Program-made: the position numbers and the translations under genes
In this document: positions 37,639-55,270 of the stretch, one piece after another
How positions within the stretch are numbered: the stretch's first letter is position 1
How the letters are laid out: every line of letters starts with the position of its first letter
The notes under the pieces: generated by a model
Database searches by the model: none
What the model saw: only the letters and a program-made list of their open reading frames with translations
What the model was told of the DNA's origin: nothing
Assembly: GCA_016342285.1 (NCBI GenBank)
Contig: JAEINQ010000023.1
Span: 1-64,000, forward strand
Reading direction: 5' to 3'
Source of the DNA: Desulfobacterales bacterium
GTDB taxonomy: Bacteria; Desulfobacterota; Desulfobacteria; Desulfobacterales; JAEINQ01
DNA length: 64,000 bases

Positions 37639-38955
37639 TCATCGGCCCAAATAGGCCGGCAACCAGGTGGCAATGGCCGGAAACAAGACAATCAGGGTCA
37701 TGCCGATGAGCTGCAGGACCATGAACTGCATCATGCCGACGTAGATGTCCTTAAGCTGCCAGCTCGGCACCACCCCCTTGAGAAAATAGGCCGAAAGGGC
37801 CACCGGCGGCGACAGCCAGGCGGTCTGCAGGGTCACGGCCACCAGGGTGCAAAACCAAAGCAGATTGTAGTCCATCTGCCGGACCAGGGGCATGAGGATG
37901 GGGATGATGATCAACACGATGGGCACCCATTCCAGGGGCCAGCCGAGGACAAAAATAAGGGCCAGGATCAAAAACAGCATCACCAGGGGGGGCAGGTGGA
38001 GGCCCATGAGCACCTCGGTCAGCATGGTGGCAGACCCCAGGCGCGAAAAAACCGACCCAAAAAAATTCGATGCCGCCACCAGCAGCAGGATCATGGCCGA
38101 GATCTCCACGGTCCGCATGGTAGAGCTTTTTAGCCCTTCCCACGTCATGCGGCGGTAGGCGGTGGTCAACACCAACGAACCAAAGGCGCCTGCCGCGGCC
38201 CCCTCGGTGGGGGTGGCCATTCCGGCCATGATGCTGCCGAGGGTGGCCAGGATCAAGGTCATCACCGGGATCACCCCGAGGCACAACTCTTTAAGCACCC
38301 AGACAAAAGAAGTGGCACGCAACTCCATTGGAAGGGGCGGGCCGAGTTCGGGGTTGATCCAGCAGCGGATCAGGGTATAGCCGATATAAATGCTGGCCAG
38401 GATGATACCGGGAAAAATCGCCGCCGCAAACAGGTCGGTGACCGGAACGCCGACCACGGGCCCCATGACCACCAGCATGATGCTTGGCGGAATCAGGATA
38501 CCCAGGGTGCCGCCGGCGGAAATGCATCCGGCCGACAGCCGCACATTGTATTTGCTTTCGGTCATGGTCGGGGCCGCCATCACGCCCAACAAGGTGATGG
38601 ATGATCCGACGATGCCGGTGGCGGCGGCAAAAACGGTGGCCGTGGCGGTCACCGCCAGGTAAAGCGAACCGGGCAGCCGGGCCAGCATCAGCTGGAAGGC
38701 CTTAAACAGCCGGTTCATCAGGCCCGAGCTTTCAAGGATGTACCCCATGAACAGGAAAAAGGGGACCGCCGACAACACCGTATCCGTCATGACCGAATAG
38801 AATTGAAGGGTCATCAGGTGAAAGACGACCTTGCCGATGCCGATGTAGCCGGTAACCAAGCTGAGAAAAATCAGCGTAAAGGATATGGGAAAACCGACCA
38901 GGATGAAGAAGAACAGACTCGCCAGGGCGAGCAGGCCGAGAACTTCGGGACTCAT
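37639..38955 (-). CDS. dctM: TRAP transporter large permease DctM
   Basis: 12-TM TRAP-L pattern: MSPEVLGLLALASLFFFILVGFPISFTLIFLSL; GGTLGILIPPSIMLVVMG. Confidence 0.93.
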   Translation of the reverse strand: MSPEVLGLLALASLFFFILVGFPISFTLIFLSLVTGYIGIGKVVFHLMTLQFYSVMTDTVLSAVPFFLFMGYILESSGLMNRLFKAFQLMLARLPGSLYLAVTATATVFAAATGIVGSSITLLGVMAAPTMTESKYNVRLSAGCISAGGTLGILIPPSIMLVVMGPVVGVPVTDLFAAAIFPGIILASIYIGYTLIRCWINPELGPPLPMELRATSFVWVLKELCLGVIPVMTLILATLGSIMAGMATPTEGAAAGAFGSLVLTTAYRRMTWEGLKSSTMRTVEISAMILLLVAASNFFGSVFSRLGSATMLTEVLMGLHLPPLVMLFLILALIFVLGWPLEWVPIVLIIIPILMPLVRQMDYNLLWFCTLVAVTLQTAWLSPPVALSAYFLKGVVPSWQLKDIYVGMMQFMVLQLIGMTLIVLFPAIATWLPAYLGR

Positions 38956-38972
38956 TGGGTACGCTCCTTGTG

Positions 38973-48388: not shown

Positions 48389-49393
48389 GTGGACATTCTA
48401 GAACGCTGTAAAAATGCCTGCCAGCAGCATCCGGGCGTCGTTGTCTTCCCCGACGCTCTGGATCAGCGCGTTCTTGAGGCCGCAAGGCAACTCAAAGCCG
48501 ATGGGCTTGTTGAACCCGTGCTGATGGCGTCGCCATTTAGCGTACGCAACAAGATGCAGACAACCCGCATGACCGGTGCGGGACTGACCGTGGTCGATCC
48601 GGTCAGCCCTGGTTTCCTGGAGAAAAACAGTCGGGACTACATGGCGTTGCGGAAAGCCAAAGGCAAGTCCGTCACAGCAGAAGCGGCCCGGGAGGCCATG
48701 CACTGCCCCCTCGGTGCGGCGGCCATGATGGTCCGTCGGGGGGAGGCGGAAATAGGCGTCGGGGGCAATCTCTCGTCCACAGCCGCGGTGCTCAGGGCCG
48801 GACTCAGCGTCCTTCCCAGAAAGCCCGGCATCAAGACCATTTCCTCCTTTTTCCTGATGGTCTCGCCCAGTGGAGAGAAGCAGTATATTTTCGCCGACTG
48901 TGCCGTCGTTCCCGAACCGTCAGCCGACACCCTGGCCGACATCGCCGTCGCCTCTGCTGACAAAGCGACCATTTTACTCGGCCAGGCGCCCCGCATCGCC
49001 ATGTTGAGCTTTTCGACCAAAGGAAGCGCGGTCCATCACCGGGCAAAGATGGTCAGCGCCGCGGTGGCACAGATCCGGACCCGTGACCCCAATCTTTTGG
49101 TGGACGGCGAGTTGCAGCTCGATGCCGCTGTCGTGCCACGGGTGGCAGCACTCAAGGCCCCGGGAAGTTTTATCGACGGCAAGGCCAATGTCCTGGTCTT
49201 CCCTTCCCTGGAGGCCGGCAACATCGGATACAAACTGGTACAGCGCCTGGCCGGCTACACCGCCATTGGCCCCTTTATACAGGGATTTGAAGGCGGGTGG
49301 CACGATCTGTCCAGGGGGTGCAGCGCCAATGACATTTACATGGTCGCCGTCATTGGGCTCTGCCTGAAACGCGGCAATGCAACACAACACTAA
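48389..49393 (+). CDS. Phosphotransacetylase (EutD/Pta type)
   Basis: VVFPDALDQRVLEAA, GGNLSSTAAVLRAGL, LSFSTKGSA, VDGELQLDAAVVPRVAALKAPGS, LVFPSLEAGNIGYKLVQRLAG. GTG start. Confidence 0.92.
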   Translation: MDILERCKNACQQHPGVVVFPDALDQRVLEAARQLKADGLVEPVLMASPFSVRNKMQTTRMTGAGLTVVDPVSPGFLEKNSRDYMALRKAKGKSVTAEAAREAMHCPLGAAAMMVRRGEAEIGVGGNLSSTAAVLRAGLSVLPRKPGIKTISSFFLMVSPSGEKQYIFADCAVVPEPSADTLADIAVASADKATILLGQAPRIAMLSFSTKGSAVHHRAKMVSAAVAQIRTRDPNLLVDGELQLDAAVVPRVAALKAPGSFIDGKANVLVFPSLEAGNIGYKLVQRLAGYTAIGPFIQGFEGGWHDLSRGCSANDIYMVAVIGLCLKRGNATQH

Positions 49394-49448: not shown

Positions 49449-49730
49449 ATGAACGATGCTTTAGGCATGATCGAAACCGTTGGACTGACCGCACTGGTGG
49501 AGGCCGCGGATGCCATGGTCAAGGCGGCTCGCGTGGAAGTGGTCGGCTTCAATCAGATCGGCGCCGGTTTGGTCACCGTGATGGTACGCGGTGATGTGGC
49601 GGCATGCAAGGCCGCGACCGATGCCGGCGTTGCCGCTGCCAAGCGGTTGGGTGAAGTGGTCAGTGCCCATGTGATTCCCAGGCCGCACGGTGACCTTGAT
49701 GACGTTTTCCCCATTAACCCGGAAAAGTAG
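49449..49730 (+). CDS. BMC-H shell protein 1
   Basis: [60 protein letters not shown]; aaggagg RBS supports start at 49449 rather than 49407. Confidence 0.95.
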
Positions 49731-49817: not shown

Positions 49818-51164
49818 ATGCAGGGAATGGATAAAGAGACCCTATTAAAATTGGTTTGCGACGCCGGCGTGGTCGGTGAAGGCGGAGCCGGTTTCCCGGC
49901 CCACGTCAAATACGACACCCAGGTGGACACGGTGATTGCCAACGGTTGTGAGTGCGAACCCTTGCTCTATACGGATCAGCATATTATGGGCCGGCACAGC
50001 GCGGCCATTGTCCAGGCCATCCAGGCCCTTATGTCGGTTACCGGGGCCACGCGCGGGGTGATCGCCATCAAGCGAAAATACCAAGACGCCGCCCGGCTGT
50101 TCACCCAAGCCATGGCCGGCACCAGCCTTGAGTTGGCCCAGTTGGACAATTTCTACCCCGCAGGCGATGAGTTTATCCTCGTACACGAAGTCACCGGCAA
50201 AACCATTCCGCCCCTGGGCCTTCCGAAAGATGTGGGGGCCGTGGTGGCCAACGTGGGCACCCTTGTTAACGTCAAACGGGCACTGGAAAACATTCCCGTT
50301 ACCCAAAAAGTGGTCACGGTAACCGGCGAGGTTGCCCGACCGGCCGTTATCGAAGTGCCCATCGGCACCCCGGTGGCCGCCTGTATTGAAAGTTGCGGCG
50401 GCCCGACCGTAGAAGATCCGGTCTATGTCCTCGGGGGTCCCATGATGGGCCGCATCGTCGAAAACGCGGCCGCCCTTGCCACCGAAGTGATCACCAAGAC
50501 CAACGGCGGGATTATTGTCCTGCCCCGTGGGCACTACCTGCACACAACCAATACGATCCCTTTGGAGGTTCTCCAGAGGCAAGCGGCGGTTTCCTGCATC
50601 CAGTGCCGCTATTGCACCGACCAGTGCCCCCGTTACCTTCTGGGTCACGGATTTGAGACCCACAAGGTGATGCGCGCCTTCAGCGCCGGCATCGATGCCG
50701 CCATGGATGCCGTTCAAGCCCACATGTGCTGCGAATGCGGGGTCTGCGAATTGTTCAGTTGCCCCATGCGCATCTCTCCGCGACGAGTCAATGTGCTTTT
50801 AAAGCAACGCTTTCGCGAGCAGGGCCTGACCTACAAAGGGCCTCGGGTGGTCAATCCGTCGCAAACGGCCCTGCGCGAGTACCGCAAGGTCCCCGTAGAG
50901 CGCCTGGCTTATAAAATAGACATCGCCCGATATATGGAAATCCATCCCGAGTTCAGCGAGACCCGCCCGCCGGCGCAAGTCCGCATCCCCCTGCACCAGC
51001 ACATCGGCGCCCCGGCCGATGCCCGGGTCAAGGTGGGCGACAGGGTCAAGACCGGCGATCTGATCGGCCGCATGGCGCAAGGGGCACTGAGCGCCAACGT
51101 TCATGCTTCCATCCAGGGCGTCGTTACCGCTGTGGACCGGTCCGTAACCATCCAAGGAGATTAA
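49818..51164 (+). CDS. PduS/RnfC-like flavin and Fe-S oxidoreductase
   Basis: GVVGEGGAGFPAHVKYDTQVDTVIANGCECEPLLYTD; CIQCRYCTDQCPRYLLGH and CCECGVCELFSCPM. Confidence 0.93.
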   Translation: MQGMDKETLLKLVCDAGVVGEGGAGFPAHVKYDTQVDTVIANGCECEPLLYTDQHIMGRHSAAIVQAIQALMSVTGATRGVIAIKRKYQDAARLFTQAMAGTSLELAQLDNFYPAGDEFILVHEVTGKTIPPLGLPKDVGAVVANVGTLVNVKRALENIPVTQKVVTVTGEVARPAVIEVPIGTPVAACIESCGGPTVEDPVYVLGGPMMGRIVENAAALATEVITKTNGGIIVLPRGHYLHTTNTIPLEVLQRQAAVSCIQCRYCTDQCPRYLLGHGFETHKVMRAFSAGIDAAMDAVQAHMCCECGVCELFSCPMRISPRRVNVLLKQRFREQGLTYKGPRVVNPSQTALREYRKVPVERLAYKIDIARYMEIHPEFSETRPPAQVRIPLHQHIGAPADARVKVGDRVKTGDLIGRMAQGALSANVHASIQGVVTAVDRSVTIQGD

Positions 51165-51168
51165 ACTG

Positions 51169-51723
51169 ATGGCCAACATCCAAGCCGTTGGGATGATCGA
51201 ATTCAACAGCATCGCCGTGGGCATCGAAGCCGCCGACCGCATGGTCAAGGCCGCCGAGGTGGAACCGCTGATGCTCAAAACCATCTGCCCCGGAAAATTT
51301 GTGGTGGCCATTTACAGCAATGTCGCCGCCGTACAGGCCTCCATTGACGCGGGATTGAACGTCGGCGCCGATGCATTGGTCGATCATTTCGTCATCCCCA
51401 ATATTGACCCGGCCGTAATCTCTGCCATGAGCTCATCCATTGCCCGTACGAGCGGCAGCGCCGTTGGGGTCATCGAGACGTTTTCAGCGGCTTCCTGCAT
51501 CGTGGCCGCCGATGTGGCCGTTAAAACCGCGGATGTGGACCTGCTTGAAGTCCGCATCGCCATGGGTGTTGGCGGCAAGGCTTTTTGCATTCTTGCCGGA
51601 AACGTCGGTCCGGTGGAAATGTCTGTGGCGTCGGGGTCCGCCTCAGCAGCAAAAAAAGGACTGCTGGTGAGAAAAACGGTCATCCCCAACATATCCCAGC
51701 AGGTCATGCGTCATATCATGTAA
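51169..51723 (+). CDS. BMC-T (tandem-domain) shell protein, PduT-like
   Basis: Two BMC domains (AVGMIEFNSIAVGIEAADRMVKAAEVE; AVGVIETFSAASCIVAADVAVKTADVDLLEV) and ICPGK Cys40. Confidence 0.94.
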   Translation: MANIQAVGMIEFNSIAVGIEAADRMVKAAEVEPLMLKTICPGKFVVAIYSNVAAVQASIDAGLNVGADALVDHFVIPNIDPAVISAMSSSIARTSGSAVGVIETFSAASCIVAADVAVKTADVDLLEVRIAMGVGGKAFCILAGNVGPVEMSVASGSASAAKKGLLVRKTVIPNISQQVMRHIM

Positions 51724-51816: not shown

Positions 51817-52167
51817 ATGACAGCTAACGATTCTTTGGGATTTGTTGAAGCATACGGCATGGTGGCAGCCATTGAGGCGGCCGATGCCATGGTCAAAACC
51901 GCCCGGGTCAAGGTTAAGACCGTCTTGAATGCCGATGCGGGCTTGCTCAGCGTGATTTGTGAAGGCGATCTGGCCGCATGCAAGGCGGCCGTCGATGCCG
52001 GCAAGGCGGCCGCCGACCGTGTGGGCAAATGCTTGCGCACCAACCTGATACCACGGCCGGCCGGAGGCATCGAAACGCTTATTTCCAAAAGCATCGGATC
52101 TGAGATCTTCCCAACGAAAACCAAAGCCAAATCTCCGGTTGCAAAAAAAGGTCCGGCTAAAAAATAA
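51817..52167 (+). CDS. BMC-H shell protein 2 with Lys-rich C-terminal tail
   Basis: [56 protein letters not shown]; tail [16 protein letters not shown]. Confidence 0.94.
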
Positions 52168-52226: not shown

Positions 52227-52499
52227 ATGGACGCATTGGGAATGATAGAAACAAAGGGATTGGTCGCCTTGATCGAAGCTTCCGACGCCATGGTTAAAAC
52301 GGCGCGGGTTGAATTGGTCGGGTACCAGAAAATCGGTGCCGGATTCGTGACCGCGCTTGTTCGTGGTGATGTGGCCGCATGCAAGGCTGCCACGGATGCC
52401 GGTGCCGCGGCTGCCCAGCGCCTGGGAGAAGTCGTCGCCGTGCATGTGATCGCACGCCCCCATGACGATCTTGAAGCTGTTTTTTCCCTGAAAAAATAG
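52227..52499 (+). CDS. BMC-H shell protein 3
   Basis: [59 protein letters not shown]; aaggag RBS. Confidence 0.95.
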
Positions 52500-52618: not shown

Positions 52619-52903
52619 ATGGAATTGGGAAAGGTCGTAGGACAGGTGGTTTCAACGGTTCGCGATCCGGGGTTGCCGAACCTGACCCTGCTTCTGGTGG
52701 ACATCGTGGACGCCGCCGGCAAGGTGGTCCTTGGCAGCCAGGTGGCCGCCGATAGCATTGGAGCCGGAGAAGGAGAACTGGTGCTTCTGGTGCGCGGCAG
52801 TTCCGCCCGCATGATCATGGAAGCAAAAACACCCCTGGATTTGAGTATTGTCGGTATTGTCGACCAGGTGACCGCCCGTAAAAAGACGCTGTACACCAAA
52901 TAA
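52619..52903 (+). CDS. BMC-P vertex protein (EutN/CcmL family)
   Basis: MELGKVVGQVVSTVRDPGLPNLTLLLVDIVDAAGKVVLGSQVAADSIGAGEGELVLLVRGSSAR. Confidence 0.94.
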   Translation: MELGKVVGQVVSTVRDPGLPNLTLLLVDIVDAAGKVVLGSQVAADSIGAGEGELVLLVRGSSARMIMEAKTPLDLSIVGIVDQVTARKKTLYTK

Positions 52904-52930: not shown

Positions 52931-54352
52931 ATGTCAGTTCAAAAAGAGCAGATAGAATCCATTGTTGCCGAGGTGCTCAGATCACTGTCGGTCGCGACCC
53001 CCGATGCGATTCCGGCCATTGATCCGGGGGACTGGGGTGTTTTTGAACAGCTCGATCAAGCCGTCGCAGCGGCGACAACCGCCTACAAACGAAACAATAC
53101 CGTTGCCCTCCGCAACAAGGTTGTCGGAGCCATTCGCACGGCCGCCCGGGAGAATGCCAAACGCCTGGCTGAAATGGCTGTTGAAGAGACCGGCATGGGC
53201 CGAATCGAAGATAAAACCACAAAGAACCTCCTTGTGGCCGATCACACGCCGGGTCCCGAGGTTCTCAACCCCAGCGCCATATCGGGCGACAACGGTTTGA
53301 CGCTGATTGAAAACGCCCCATGGGGCGTTATCGCATCGGTGACCCCCTCGACAAACCCCGGCGCCACGGTGATCAACAACGCCATCAGCATGATCTCCGG
53401 AGGGAATTCAGTAGTGTTTGCACCCCACCCCGCGGCCAAACGCGTCACCCAGGAAACCATTCGCATCCTAAACCGTGCCATCGTCGCCGAAACCGGCATC
53501 AACAACTTGATGGTCTGCGTCCGCGAACCGAGCATCGAAGTGGCCCAGCAATTGTTCACCCAGCCCGGCATCCACCTGCTGGTGGTAACCGGTGGCGAAG
53601 CCGTGGTGGAAGCGGCCCGCAAGAGTACGAATAAACGGCTCATCGCCGCGGGGGCCGGCAACCCACCGGTGGTGGTCGACGACACGGCCGATCTGGCCCG
53701 GGCCGCCGAGAGCATCTATACCGGCGCCTCCTTTGACAACAATATCGTCTGTGCCGATGAAAAAGAGATTATTGTCGTCGACCGGGTCGCAGACGCCTTT
53801 AAAGAAGCGCTCAAAGGCCGCGGTGCCATCGAGATTTCCCTGGAACAGGCCGATGCCATTGCCCGGGCCGTGCTGATCGATTACCCGGGTGCCAAGTGCC
53901 GCCCCAACCCCAAATGGGTGGGACGCGATGCCTCCGAACTGGCAGCGGCCGGCGGGTTCAGCATTGCCGAAACCTGTCGTCTTCTCTTCGTGGACGTGGG
54001 TCGCGATGTGGACCATGTTTTTGCCCGCATGGAACAGATGATGCCCCTGTTGCCCGTATTGCGTGCCCGCGACTTCGACGAAGCCCTGGCGTGGGCATTG
54101 GTCCTTGAACGGGGCCTTCTGCACACCGCCGGTCTGCATTCGCGAAACATTGACAACATGGACGCCATGGCCACACGTATCAACTCCAGCCTCTTTGTTA
54201 AAAACGGACCCCATGTGGCCGGATTGGGTGCCGGCGGCGAGGGCTGGACATCCATGACCATCTCTACCCCCACGGGTGAAGGGGTGACCAATGCACGCAC
54301 CTTTGTACGCCTGAGACGCTGCACCCTGGTCGGCAGCTTCCGGATTGTCTAA
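52931..54352 (+). CDS. CoA-acylating aldehyde dehydrogenase (PduP/EutE-like) with N-terminal encapsulation peptide
   Basis: N-term VQKEQIESIVAEVLRSLS; ENAPWGVIASVTPSTNP; catalytic FDNNIVCADEKEIIVVD. Confidence 0.94.
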   Translation: MSVQKEQIESIVAEVLRSLSVATPDAIPAIDPGDWGVFEQLDQAVAAATTAYKRNNTVALRNKVVGAIRTAARENAKRLAEMAVEETGMGRIEDKTTKNLLVADHTPGPEVLNPSAISGDNGLTLIENAPWGVIASVTPSTNPGATVINNAISMISGGNSVVFAPHPAAKRVTQETIRILNRAIVAETGINNLMVCVREPSIEVAQQLFTQPGIHLLVVTGGEAVVEAARKSTNKRLIAAGAGNPPVVVDDTADLARAAESIYTGASFDNNIVCADEKEIIVVDRVADAFKEALKGRGAIEISLEQADAIARAVLIDYPGAKCRPNPKWVGRDASELAAAGGFSIAETCRLLFVDVGRDVDHVFARMEQMMPLLPVLRARDFDEALAWALVLERGLLHTAGLHSRNIDNMDAMATRINSSLFVKNGPHVAGLGAGGEGWTSMTISTPTGEGVTNARTFVRLRRCTLVGSFRIV

Positions 54353-54356
54353 AAAT

Positions 54357-55178
54357 ATGGCCATCACTTGGAAAGAAGCAGAGAGACGGCTGGATATCGC
54401 CGCCGAGCTGCTCGACAAAACCGACCGGTGCATCGTGGAAGGGCCATTGCATGCAGGCATCGACCTGGGGACCGCCGATGTGGTGCTGATGGTCTTAAAC
54501 GCCAACGGGGAACCCGTGGCCGCTTTCCTGGAATGGGCCGAAGTGGTGCGCGACGGTATCGTGGTGGATTTTATCGGAGCGGTGGACATCGTATGCCGCC
54601 TCCTGGAAAAAGCCGCCAACCGGTTAAACAGGGAAATCAGCCAGGCAGCCACCTCCTTTCCCCCGGGAACCGACCACCGTCTCTCGACGAATATCCTCGA
54701 ACGGGCAGGGCTCGACGTCGTGGCCGTTCGCGATGAGCCATGCTGCGTGGCTCAGTTGCTGCAATTGGACAAAGCGGCGGTGGTGGATATCGGTGGGGGC
54801 ACCACGGGAACCGCGGTCGTTCAAAACGGGAACATCGTCTTCAGTGACGACGAGCCCTCCGGAGGGCGTCATATCGGCCTTTCCATTGCCGGGCACTTTG
54901 ACATTTCCTTTGAGGAAGCGGAAAAACGCAAGCGCCAGCCCGAGCGTTACGGCATCCTGGATCTGGCACGCCCGACCCTGCAGCGCATCAGCGACATTGT
55001 GGCCCGCCACATCAAAGGGCATGCCGTGGAAAAAATCATCCTGACCGGGGGGACATGCTGTCTGCCAGGCATCGAAGACGTTTTCATGCACGAACTGGGA
55101 CTCCCCGTCCAACTCCCCAACCAGCCGTTGCTCCTCACCCCCCTGGCCATCGCATCGTTGTCTCTTAATAAAATATGA
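54357..55178 (+). CDS. eutJ: EutJ-like chaperone/actin-fold ATPase
   Basis: AGIDLGTADVVLMVLNANGEPVAAFLEWAEVVRDGIVVDFIGA; VVDIGGGTTGTAVV; LTGGTCCLPGIEDVF. Confidence 0.92.
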   Translation: MAITWKEAERRLDIAAELLDKTDRCIVEGPLHAGIDLGTADVVLMVLNANGEPVAAFLEWAEVVRDGIVVDFIGAVDIVCRLLEKAANRLNREISQAATSFPPGTDHRLSTNILERAGLDVVAVRDEPCCVAQLLQLDKAAVVDIGGGTTGTAVVQNGNIVFSDDEPSGGRHIGLSIAGHFDISFEEAEKRKRQPERYGILDLARPTLQRISDIVARHIKGHAVEKIILTGGTCCLPGIEDVFMHELGLPVQLPNQPLLLTPLAIASLSLNKI

Positions 55179-55240: not shown

Positions 55241-55270
55241 TAACCACGGGTTGTAACACCCGTGGTTTTT
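55241..55270 (+). terminator. Terminator closing the BMC operon
   Basis: AACCACGGG ttgtaaca CCCGTGGTT TTTT. Confidence 0.88.

What the first reader, a model, noticed from the sequence alone, without database searches (positions are those of the whole stretch)
49818..51723. Predicted electron conduit across the shell: PduS-like flavo/Fe-S protein next to a PduT-like BMC-T
PduS-like has CIQCRYCTDQCP and CCECGVCELFSCP. The adjacent BMC-T has Cys40 in ICPGK, at the position where PduT has a pore Cys (Cys38) ligating a [4Fe-4S] cluster. Sulfite reduction is cytosolic while acetaldehyde oxidation would be lumenal, so electrons must leave the BMC; this pair is a plausible route.
Basis: partly seen in the sequence, partly recalled or inferred. 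Interest (0 to 1): 0.7.

Follow-up and report, generated by a model that had tools for sequence, protein, structure and literature searches.

The report
PduS–PduT pair, isethionate microcompartment
A sulfite-respiring bacterium carries genes for a protein shell in which isethionate is split, together with a paired flavin/iron-sulfur enzyme and pore protein that probably carry electrons out through the shell; the same gene set and the same idea were already published for the gut bacterium Bilophila, so this is a new example rather than a new kind of system.

Summary
At 49818-51164 lies a PduS-type protein: Nuo51 FMN domain, SLBB, two [4Fe-4S] motifs and a C-terminal RnfC barrel, with all eight ligand cysteines at PduS spacing. 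The next gene, 51169-51723, is a tandem BMC-T with Cys40 in ICPGK, aligned with the pore Cys of PduT. They sit in an isethionate sulfite-lyase (IslA) microcompartment operon.

Both the operon and the conduit idea are already published: Burrichter 2021 for Bilophila, Ferlez 2019 for glycyl-radical microcompartments generally. I add comparative tests. (1) In 395 genomes of the phylum, the 15 with PduS are exactly the 15 with a tandem PduT-like BMC-T. (2) Nearly every PduS-adjacent BMC-T has the pore Cys (93 of 94; the exceptional locus has a second one that does). (3) Ten IslA loci outside microcompartments have no PduS; all 13 microcompartment IslA loci do. (4) PduS and its BMC-T diverge together (r 0.77), much less with the aldehyde dehydrogenase. 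(5) IslA microcompartment loci lack an EutG-like alcohol dehydrogenase.

This favours a shell-linked NADH-oxidising electron outlet, but no electron transfer has been shown. The only measured PduT potential (+99 mV) argues against direct coupling to sulfite. Verdict: real, ordinary in kind, mechanism plausible.

The parts
49818..51164 (+). PduS-type NADH/FMN/2x[4Fe-4S] oxidoreductase (start could be 49827)
   Evidence: Pfam architecture; 8 invariant Cys; fold match to RnfC
51169..51723 (+). PduT-like tandem BMC-T shell protein, pore Cys40 at 51286-51288
   Evidence: AF2 pLDDT 93.5 and Foldseek to 3NWG, 3PAC and 3N79
41776..44253 (+). IslA isethionate sulfite-lyase (glycyl radical enzyme)
   Evidence: 1408 bits to D. 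vulgaris IslA 5YMR vs 1180 to 6LON (read as HpsG); sulfonate residues R184/Q188/R673 and IslA-type T307/F677
44408..45355 (+). IslB, radical-SAM activating enzyme
   Evidence: NF048010, TIGR02494
45745..46740 (-). amidohydrolase_2 protein found beside most IslA genes
   Evidence: Pfam; neighbourhoods
47610..48329 (+). EutQ-like (putative acetate kinase)
48389..49393 (+). EutD-type phosphotransacetylase
49449..49730 (+). BMC-H shell protein
   Evidence: PF00936 96.9 bits; RBS AAGGAGG
51817..52167 (+). BMC-H shell protein
52227..52499 (+). BMC-H shell protein
52619..52903 (+). BMC-P (EutN/CcmL) vertex protein
52931..54352 (+). EutE-type CoA-acylating aldehyde dehydrogenase with encapsulation-peptide-like N-terminus
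   Evidence: NF011927 633.7 bits, cut-off 403; N-termini
54345..55178 (+). EutJ-like chaperone; terminator-like hairpin follows at 55242-55267
37639..41003 (-). TRAP transporter DctM/DctQ/DctP, likely isethionate uptake
   Evidence: ORFs; DctP Pfam

Best explanation
The two genes form a PduS-PduT redox module of an isethionate (IslA) microcompartment. IslA makes acetaldehyde and sulfite inside the shell and the aldehyde dehydrogenase makes acetyl-CoA and NADH (supported by homology and published Bilophila work). PduS, held at the inner face of the shell by its BMC-T partner, oxidises lumenal NADH through FMN and two [4Fe-4S] clusters and passes single electrons to a [4Fe-4S] cluster held by three Cys40 residues at the trimer pore, from which a cytosolic acceptor removes them. 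This regenerates NAD+ without making ethanol. The families, linkage and Cys position are shown here; NADH oxidation and PduS-PduT binding are shown for Citrobacter proteins only; cluster occupancy, electron crossing and the acceptor are inferred.
For: PduS domains and all 8 cluster Cys; fold match to NADH-bound RnfC. Pore Cys aligned to PduT and PduT fold. 93 of 94 PduS-adjacent BMC-T have the Cys, and the 94th locus has a second one that does. PduS and tandem PduT-like BMC-T occur in the same 15 of 395 genomes. IslA loci outside shells lack PduS, 0 of 10, versus 13 of 13 in shells. Distances of PduS and BMC-T correlate at r 0.77 (partial 0.73 given AldDH), versus partial 0.07 for BMC-T with AldDH. 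No EutG-like ADH in IslA shell loci, versus 7 of 10 loci with other GREs, CutC where scanned. Citrobacter PduS is reduced by NADH and co-purifies with PduT. The Bilophila PduS homologue is found with purified shells.
Against: Citrobacter PduT cluster potential is +99 mV, too high for sulfite. No experiment shows electron passage. Bilophila makes ethanol, and an ADH plus Flx-Hdr route was proposed instead. CutC-type loci often have both PduS/PduT and an ADH, so the pair is not simply a substitute for ADH. Linkage and co-divergence could reflect cassette inheritance.
Confidence: 0.55

Rival explanations
1. Electrons flow inward or stay in the lumen: PduS/PduT supply the reductant that IslB needs to (re)activate IslA inside the shell.
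For: Ferlez 2019 proposes PduS as NADH:flavodoxin oxidoreductase for the activating enzyme. IslB is in the locus, and IslA outside shells does without PduS, as expected if only an enclosed activase needs it.
Against: The PduS flavin at -150 to -262 mV is weak for a radical-SAM cluster (inference). PduS/PduT also occur in EutB and PduC loci and in loci with no GRE, EutB or PduC in view. Activation is not stoichiometric, so it leaves the NADH problem unsolved (Burrichter).
Confidence: 0.15
2. NAD+ is recycled by an alcohol dehydrogenase encoded elsewhere (ethanol formed), with cytosolic Flx-Hdr taking the NADH; PduS/PduT have a minor or structural role.
For: Bilophila makes ethanol; its adh and hdr-flx genes give fitness in the gut. 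This genome has four full iron-type ADH hits and about 12 zinc-type hits.
Against: None lies near the shell genes; no AdhE-sized ORF among the iron-type hits; none of the three best iron-type ADHs scanned reaches the EutG, SarD or AdhE cut-off. It does not explain why PduS/PduT are present in all 13 IslA shell loci.
Confidence: 0.2
3. PduS is inherited as a cobalamin reductase cassette and has no redox export role here.
For: PduS of Pdu compartments reduces cobalamin.
Against: No B12 enzyme in the locus; ligand and pore Cys stay intact; present in two differently arranged IslA shell types (L043-type, L105/L106).
Confidence: 0.07

Closest known systems
IslA (isethionate) microcompartment of Bilophila wadsworthia 3.1.6 (Burrichter 2021, PMC8667426)
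   Same: IslAB, EutE-type AldDH, PTA, EutQ, EutN, PduS homologue (00648), PduT homologue (00647), amidohydrolase; no ADH in the cluster; same electron-export proposal
   Different: This genome is a Desulfobacterota with a different gene order, TRAP transporter adjacent, EutJ present, one EutN instead of two and no EutT-like gene found in the locus
PduS/PduT of the Pdu microcompartment (Citrobacter, Salmonella)
   Same: Domain architecture, Cys spacing, pore Cys, gene adjacency
   Different: No B12 enzyme here; BMC-T scores 123 bits against the PduT equivalog cut-off of 250.3
GRM loci with PduS/PduT (Ferlez 2019, PMC6325248)
   Same: Glycyl-radical enzyme with PduS/PduT pair
   Different: The substrate is a sulfonate and the locus lacks the ADH of the choline loci
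3NWG, microcompartment protein of Desulfitobacterium hafniense
   Same: Closest solved BMC-T (50-51% identity) with pore Cys; 69% identical to the BMC-T of the IslA locus L105, so it may come from an isethionate shell
   Different: Its locus was not examined here

Membership tests
PduT (TIGR02526) | tandem BMC domains, single BMC-T chain | tested here: met
PduT (TIGR02526) | pore Cys in domain 1 (Cys38 equivalent) | tested here: met
PduT (TIGR02526) | curated equivalog score of 250.3 bits | tested here: not met
   123 bits; hence 'PduT-like', not a member of the equivalog
PduT (TIGR02526) | [4Fe-4S] cluster at the trimer axis | not testable with these tools
   needs EPR or a structure
PduS | domain order Complex1_51K, SLBB, Fer4 dicluster, RnfC_N | tested here: met
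PduS | two tetracysteine motifs and the conserved ninth Cys (C54; here C46) | tested here: met
   one search compared with PMC2982820
PduS | binding to PduT and NADH-dependent reductase activity | not testable with these tools
   shown for the Citrobacter protein only
RnfC (TIGR01945) | RnfC barrel at the N-terminus, within an Rnf complex | tested here: not met
   the barrel is C-terminal although the score passes the rnfC cut-off, 253.8 vs 245.95
IslA microcompartment | IslA sulfonate-binding residues and no HpsG substitutions | tested here: met
   residues from PMC6453916
IslA microcompartment | shell genes, AldDH and PTA in one locus | tested here: met
IslA microcompartment | shells formed on taurine or isethionate | not testable with these tools

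The most novel reading that the evidence does not exclude
PduS plus pore-Cys BMC-T is a general encapsulation-linked electron outlet that lets respiring bacteria run aldehyde-oxidising shells without a lumenal alcohol dehydrogenase; the IslA enzyme, found both with and without shells in one phylum, is the natural test of it.
Probability: 0.4. Interest if true: 0.6.

Novelty: new member of a known kind. Interest (0 to 1): 0.33.

Why it matters
How cofactors are recycled inside closed protein shells, and whether electrons can be wired through a shell pore, is an open question. IslA loci with and without shells give a clean comparison, and in all of these the PduS/PduT pair goes with the shell rather than with the enzyme. 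If shown, the pair would be a natural wire through a protein shell, of use in engineering redox compartments, and would complete the energy budget of organosulfonate respiration.

Tried and rejected
NCBIfam calls the GRE a sulfopropanediol (DHPS) dehydratase of the HpsG type (NF048011, 1557 bits). Rejected: it is closer to solved IslA (1408 and 1331 bits) than to 6LON, read as HpsG (1180), and carries IslA-type Thr307 and Phe677. The PduS is not an Rnf subunit despite passing the rnfC cut-off: the domains are permuted and no other Rnf genes adjoin. An iron-type ADH in one IslA shell locus (L051) was first counted as lumenal ADH; its best family is sulfoacetaldehyde reductase SarD (479.6 bits, below the 700 cut-off). 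One of the ten non-shell IslA rows in the residue check (L190) picked a wrong ORF and is ignored.

Full report
Observation. The ORF at 49818-51164 has the four-domain PduS architecture and eight cluster cysteines with exactly the spacing reported for Citrobacter PduS. The next ORF, 51169-51723, is a tandem BMC-T. Its Cys40 aligns with the pore cysteine of PduT (3PAC) and with the serine of the deposited PduT C38S mutant (3N79). The stop of one gene and start of the next are 4 bp apart and the ribosome site of the second lies inside the first. AlphaFold2 models are confident (pLDDT 93.5 and 85.1) and match PduT-type BMC-T and RnfC structures respectively.

Context. The locus holds IslA and IslB, EutQ, a EutD-type phosphotransacetylase, three BMC-H, one BMC-P, a EutE-type aldehyde dehydrogenase with an amphipathic N-terminal extension, EutJ, and a divergent TRAP transporter. 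A terminator-like hairpin follows EutJ. IslA identity rests on score (1408 and 1331 bits to solved IslA, 1180 to 6LON, which I take to be HpsG) and on residues: the sulfonate-binding Arg, Gln and Arg are present, and Thr307 and Phe677 are of the IslA type. The genome has dissimilatory sulfite reductase and no BMC domains outside this contig.

Alcohol dehydrogenase. None lies in the locus. Genome-wide there are four full iron-type hits plus one partial hit and twelve zinc-type hits, none near the shell genes. The three iron-type proteins scanned do not reach the EutG, SarD or AdhE cut-offs, and no AdhE-sized frame appears. An ADH without a targeting peptide could still be recruited, as PduQ is in Pdu shells, so this is not an exclusion.

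Comparative tests. (a) In 395 genomes of the phylum, PduS (E up to 1e-60) is in 15. A full-length PduT-like BMC-T is in the same 15, and only two further genomes have any BMC domain at E up to 1e-10. Five of the 15 are one genus, so the Fisher p (1.9e-27) overstates independence. (b) Eighty PduS loci were fetched by PduS sequence alone, so the sample is not biased for the pore Cys; with loci, 93 of 94 adjacent BMC-T have the Cys. The exception is an L118 protein whose locus has a second, Cys-bearing one next to PduS. Among 31 non-adjacent tandem BMC-T of the same loci, 19 lack it (they look like EutL) and 12, the second BMC-T of choline-type loci, have it; the Cys is therefore not exclusive to PduS partners. 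(c) Thirteen IslA loci in shell operons all have PduS and BMC-T; ten IslA loci without shell genes have neither. PduS thus follows the shell, not the sulfonate lyase. (d) Pairwise distances over 65 loci correlate at 0.77 for PduS with BMC-T, 0.43 for PduS with AldDH and 0.37 for BMC-T with AldDH; the partial correlation of BMC-T with AldDH given PduS is 0.07. The two behave as one evolving unit inside mosaic loci. (e) EutG-like ADH is in 7 of 10 loci with other GREs (the four of these scanned are CutC; the first grouping left out loci under 15 kb) and in 1 of 13 IslA shell loci; that one is SarD-like. (f) PduS/PduT also occur in loci with EutB or PduC, and in loci where neither these nor a GRE is seen, which weakens the view that the pair serves only cobalamin or only the activase. 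A distant or unlinked signature enzyme cannot be excluded there. None of these p-values is corrected for relatedness.

What is known. Parsons 2010 showed NADH-dependent reduction of PduS and its co-purification with PduT and suggested electron passage out of the shell (PMC2982820). Ferlez 2019 extended this to GRM loci and noted the conserved cysteine (PMC6325248). Burrichter 2021 described this very gene set in Bilophila, found the PduS homologue with purified shells, noted the missing ADH and proposed PduS/PduT export (PMC8667426). A 2025 study calls NAD recycling in these shells still elusive and proposes ADH plus Flx-Hdr (PMC12125255). The finding is therefore a new member of a known kind with a published hypothesis.

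Mechanism and weight. Most likely PduS re-oxidises lumenal NADH and the BMC-T cluster carries electrons through the pore (0.55). Shown here: families, residues, linkage, co-occurrence, co-divergence. Shown elsewhere for relatives: NADH reduction and binding. Inferred: cluster in this BMC-T, direction, acceptor. The main objection is energetic: PduT at +99 mV cannot reduce sulfite (-116 mV). The potential of this BMC-T is unknown, and an engineered BMC-T with a pore Cys has -370 mV (cited in Ferlez), so the value can vary widely.

Noticed in passing
L122, L117, L032, L034 (also L054, L067, L076, L078): Deltaproteobacterial shell loci with PduS/PduT, EutJ and BMC-H. The two scanned (L122, L117) have N-methylglutamate-type genes: in L122 a glutamine-synthetase-like protein, class II amidotransferase, FMN glutamate-synthase domain, SoxA- and SoxB-like flavoproteins and CoA-acylating AldDH; in L117 the glutamate-synthase and flavoprotein genes. 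Possibly an alkylamine (N-alkylglutamate) microcompartment; no paper found in one library search.
   Followed up: partly
window 45745-46740 (-): Amidohydrolase_2 protein co-occurs with IslA in shell loci and in most non-shell loci, and in Bilophila; role unknown, so it follows the enzyme rather than the shell.
   Followed up: partly
window 41776-44253: NCBIfam NF048011 '(2S)-3-sulfopropanediol dehydratase' scores IslA proteins far above its cut-off, so automatic annotation will misname isethionate sulfite-lyases; likewise TIGR01945 names this PduS an RnfC.
   Followed up: yes
L048 (Neiella litorisoli): A gammaproteobacterium has a PduS (59%) and BMC-T of the IslA-shell type plus a second Cys-bearing tandem BMC-T, but no GRE or AldDH recognised within 10 kb.
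   Followed up: no
second tandem BMC-T in choline-type loci (L030, L033, L060, L068, L082, L100, L113): A second BMC-T, not next to PduS, also carries a pore Cys (C-S/A-G-R), so these shells may have two redox-active pore types.
   Followed up: no
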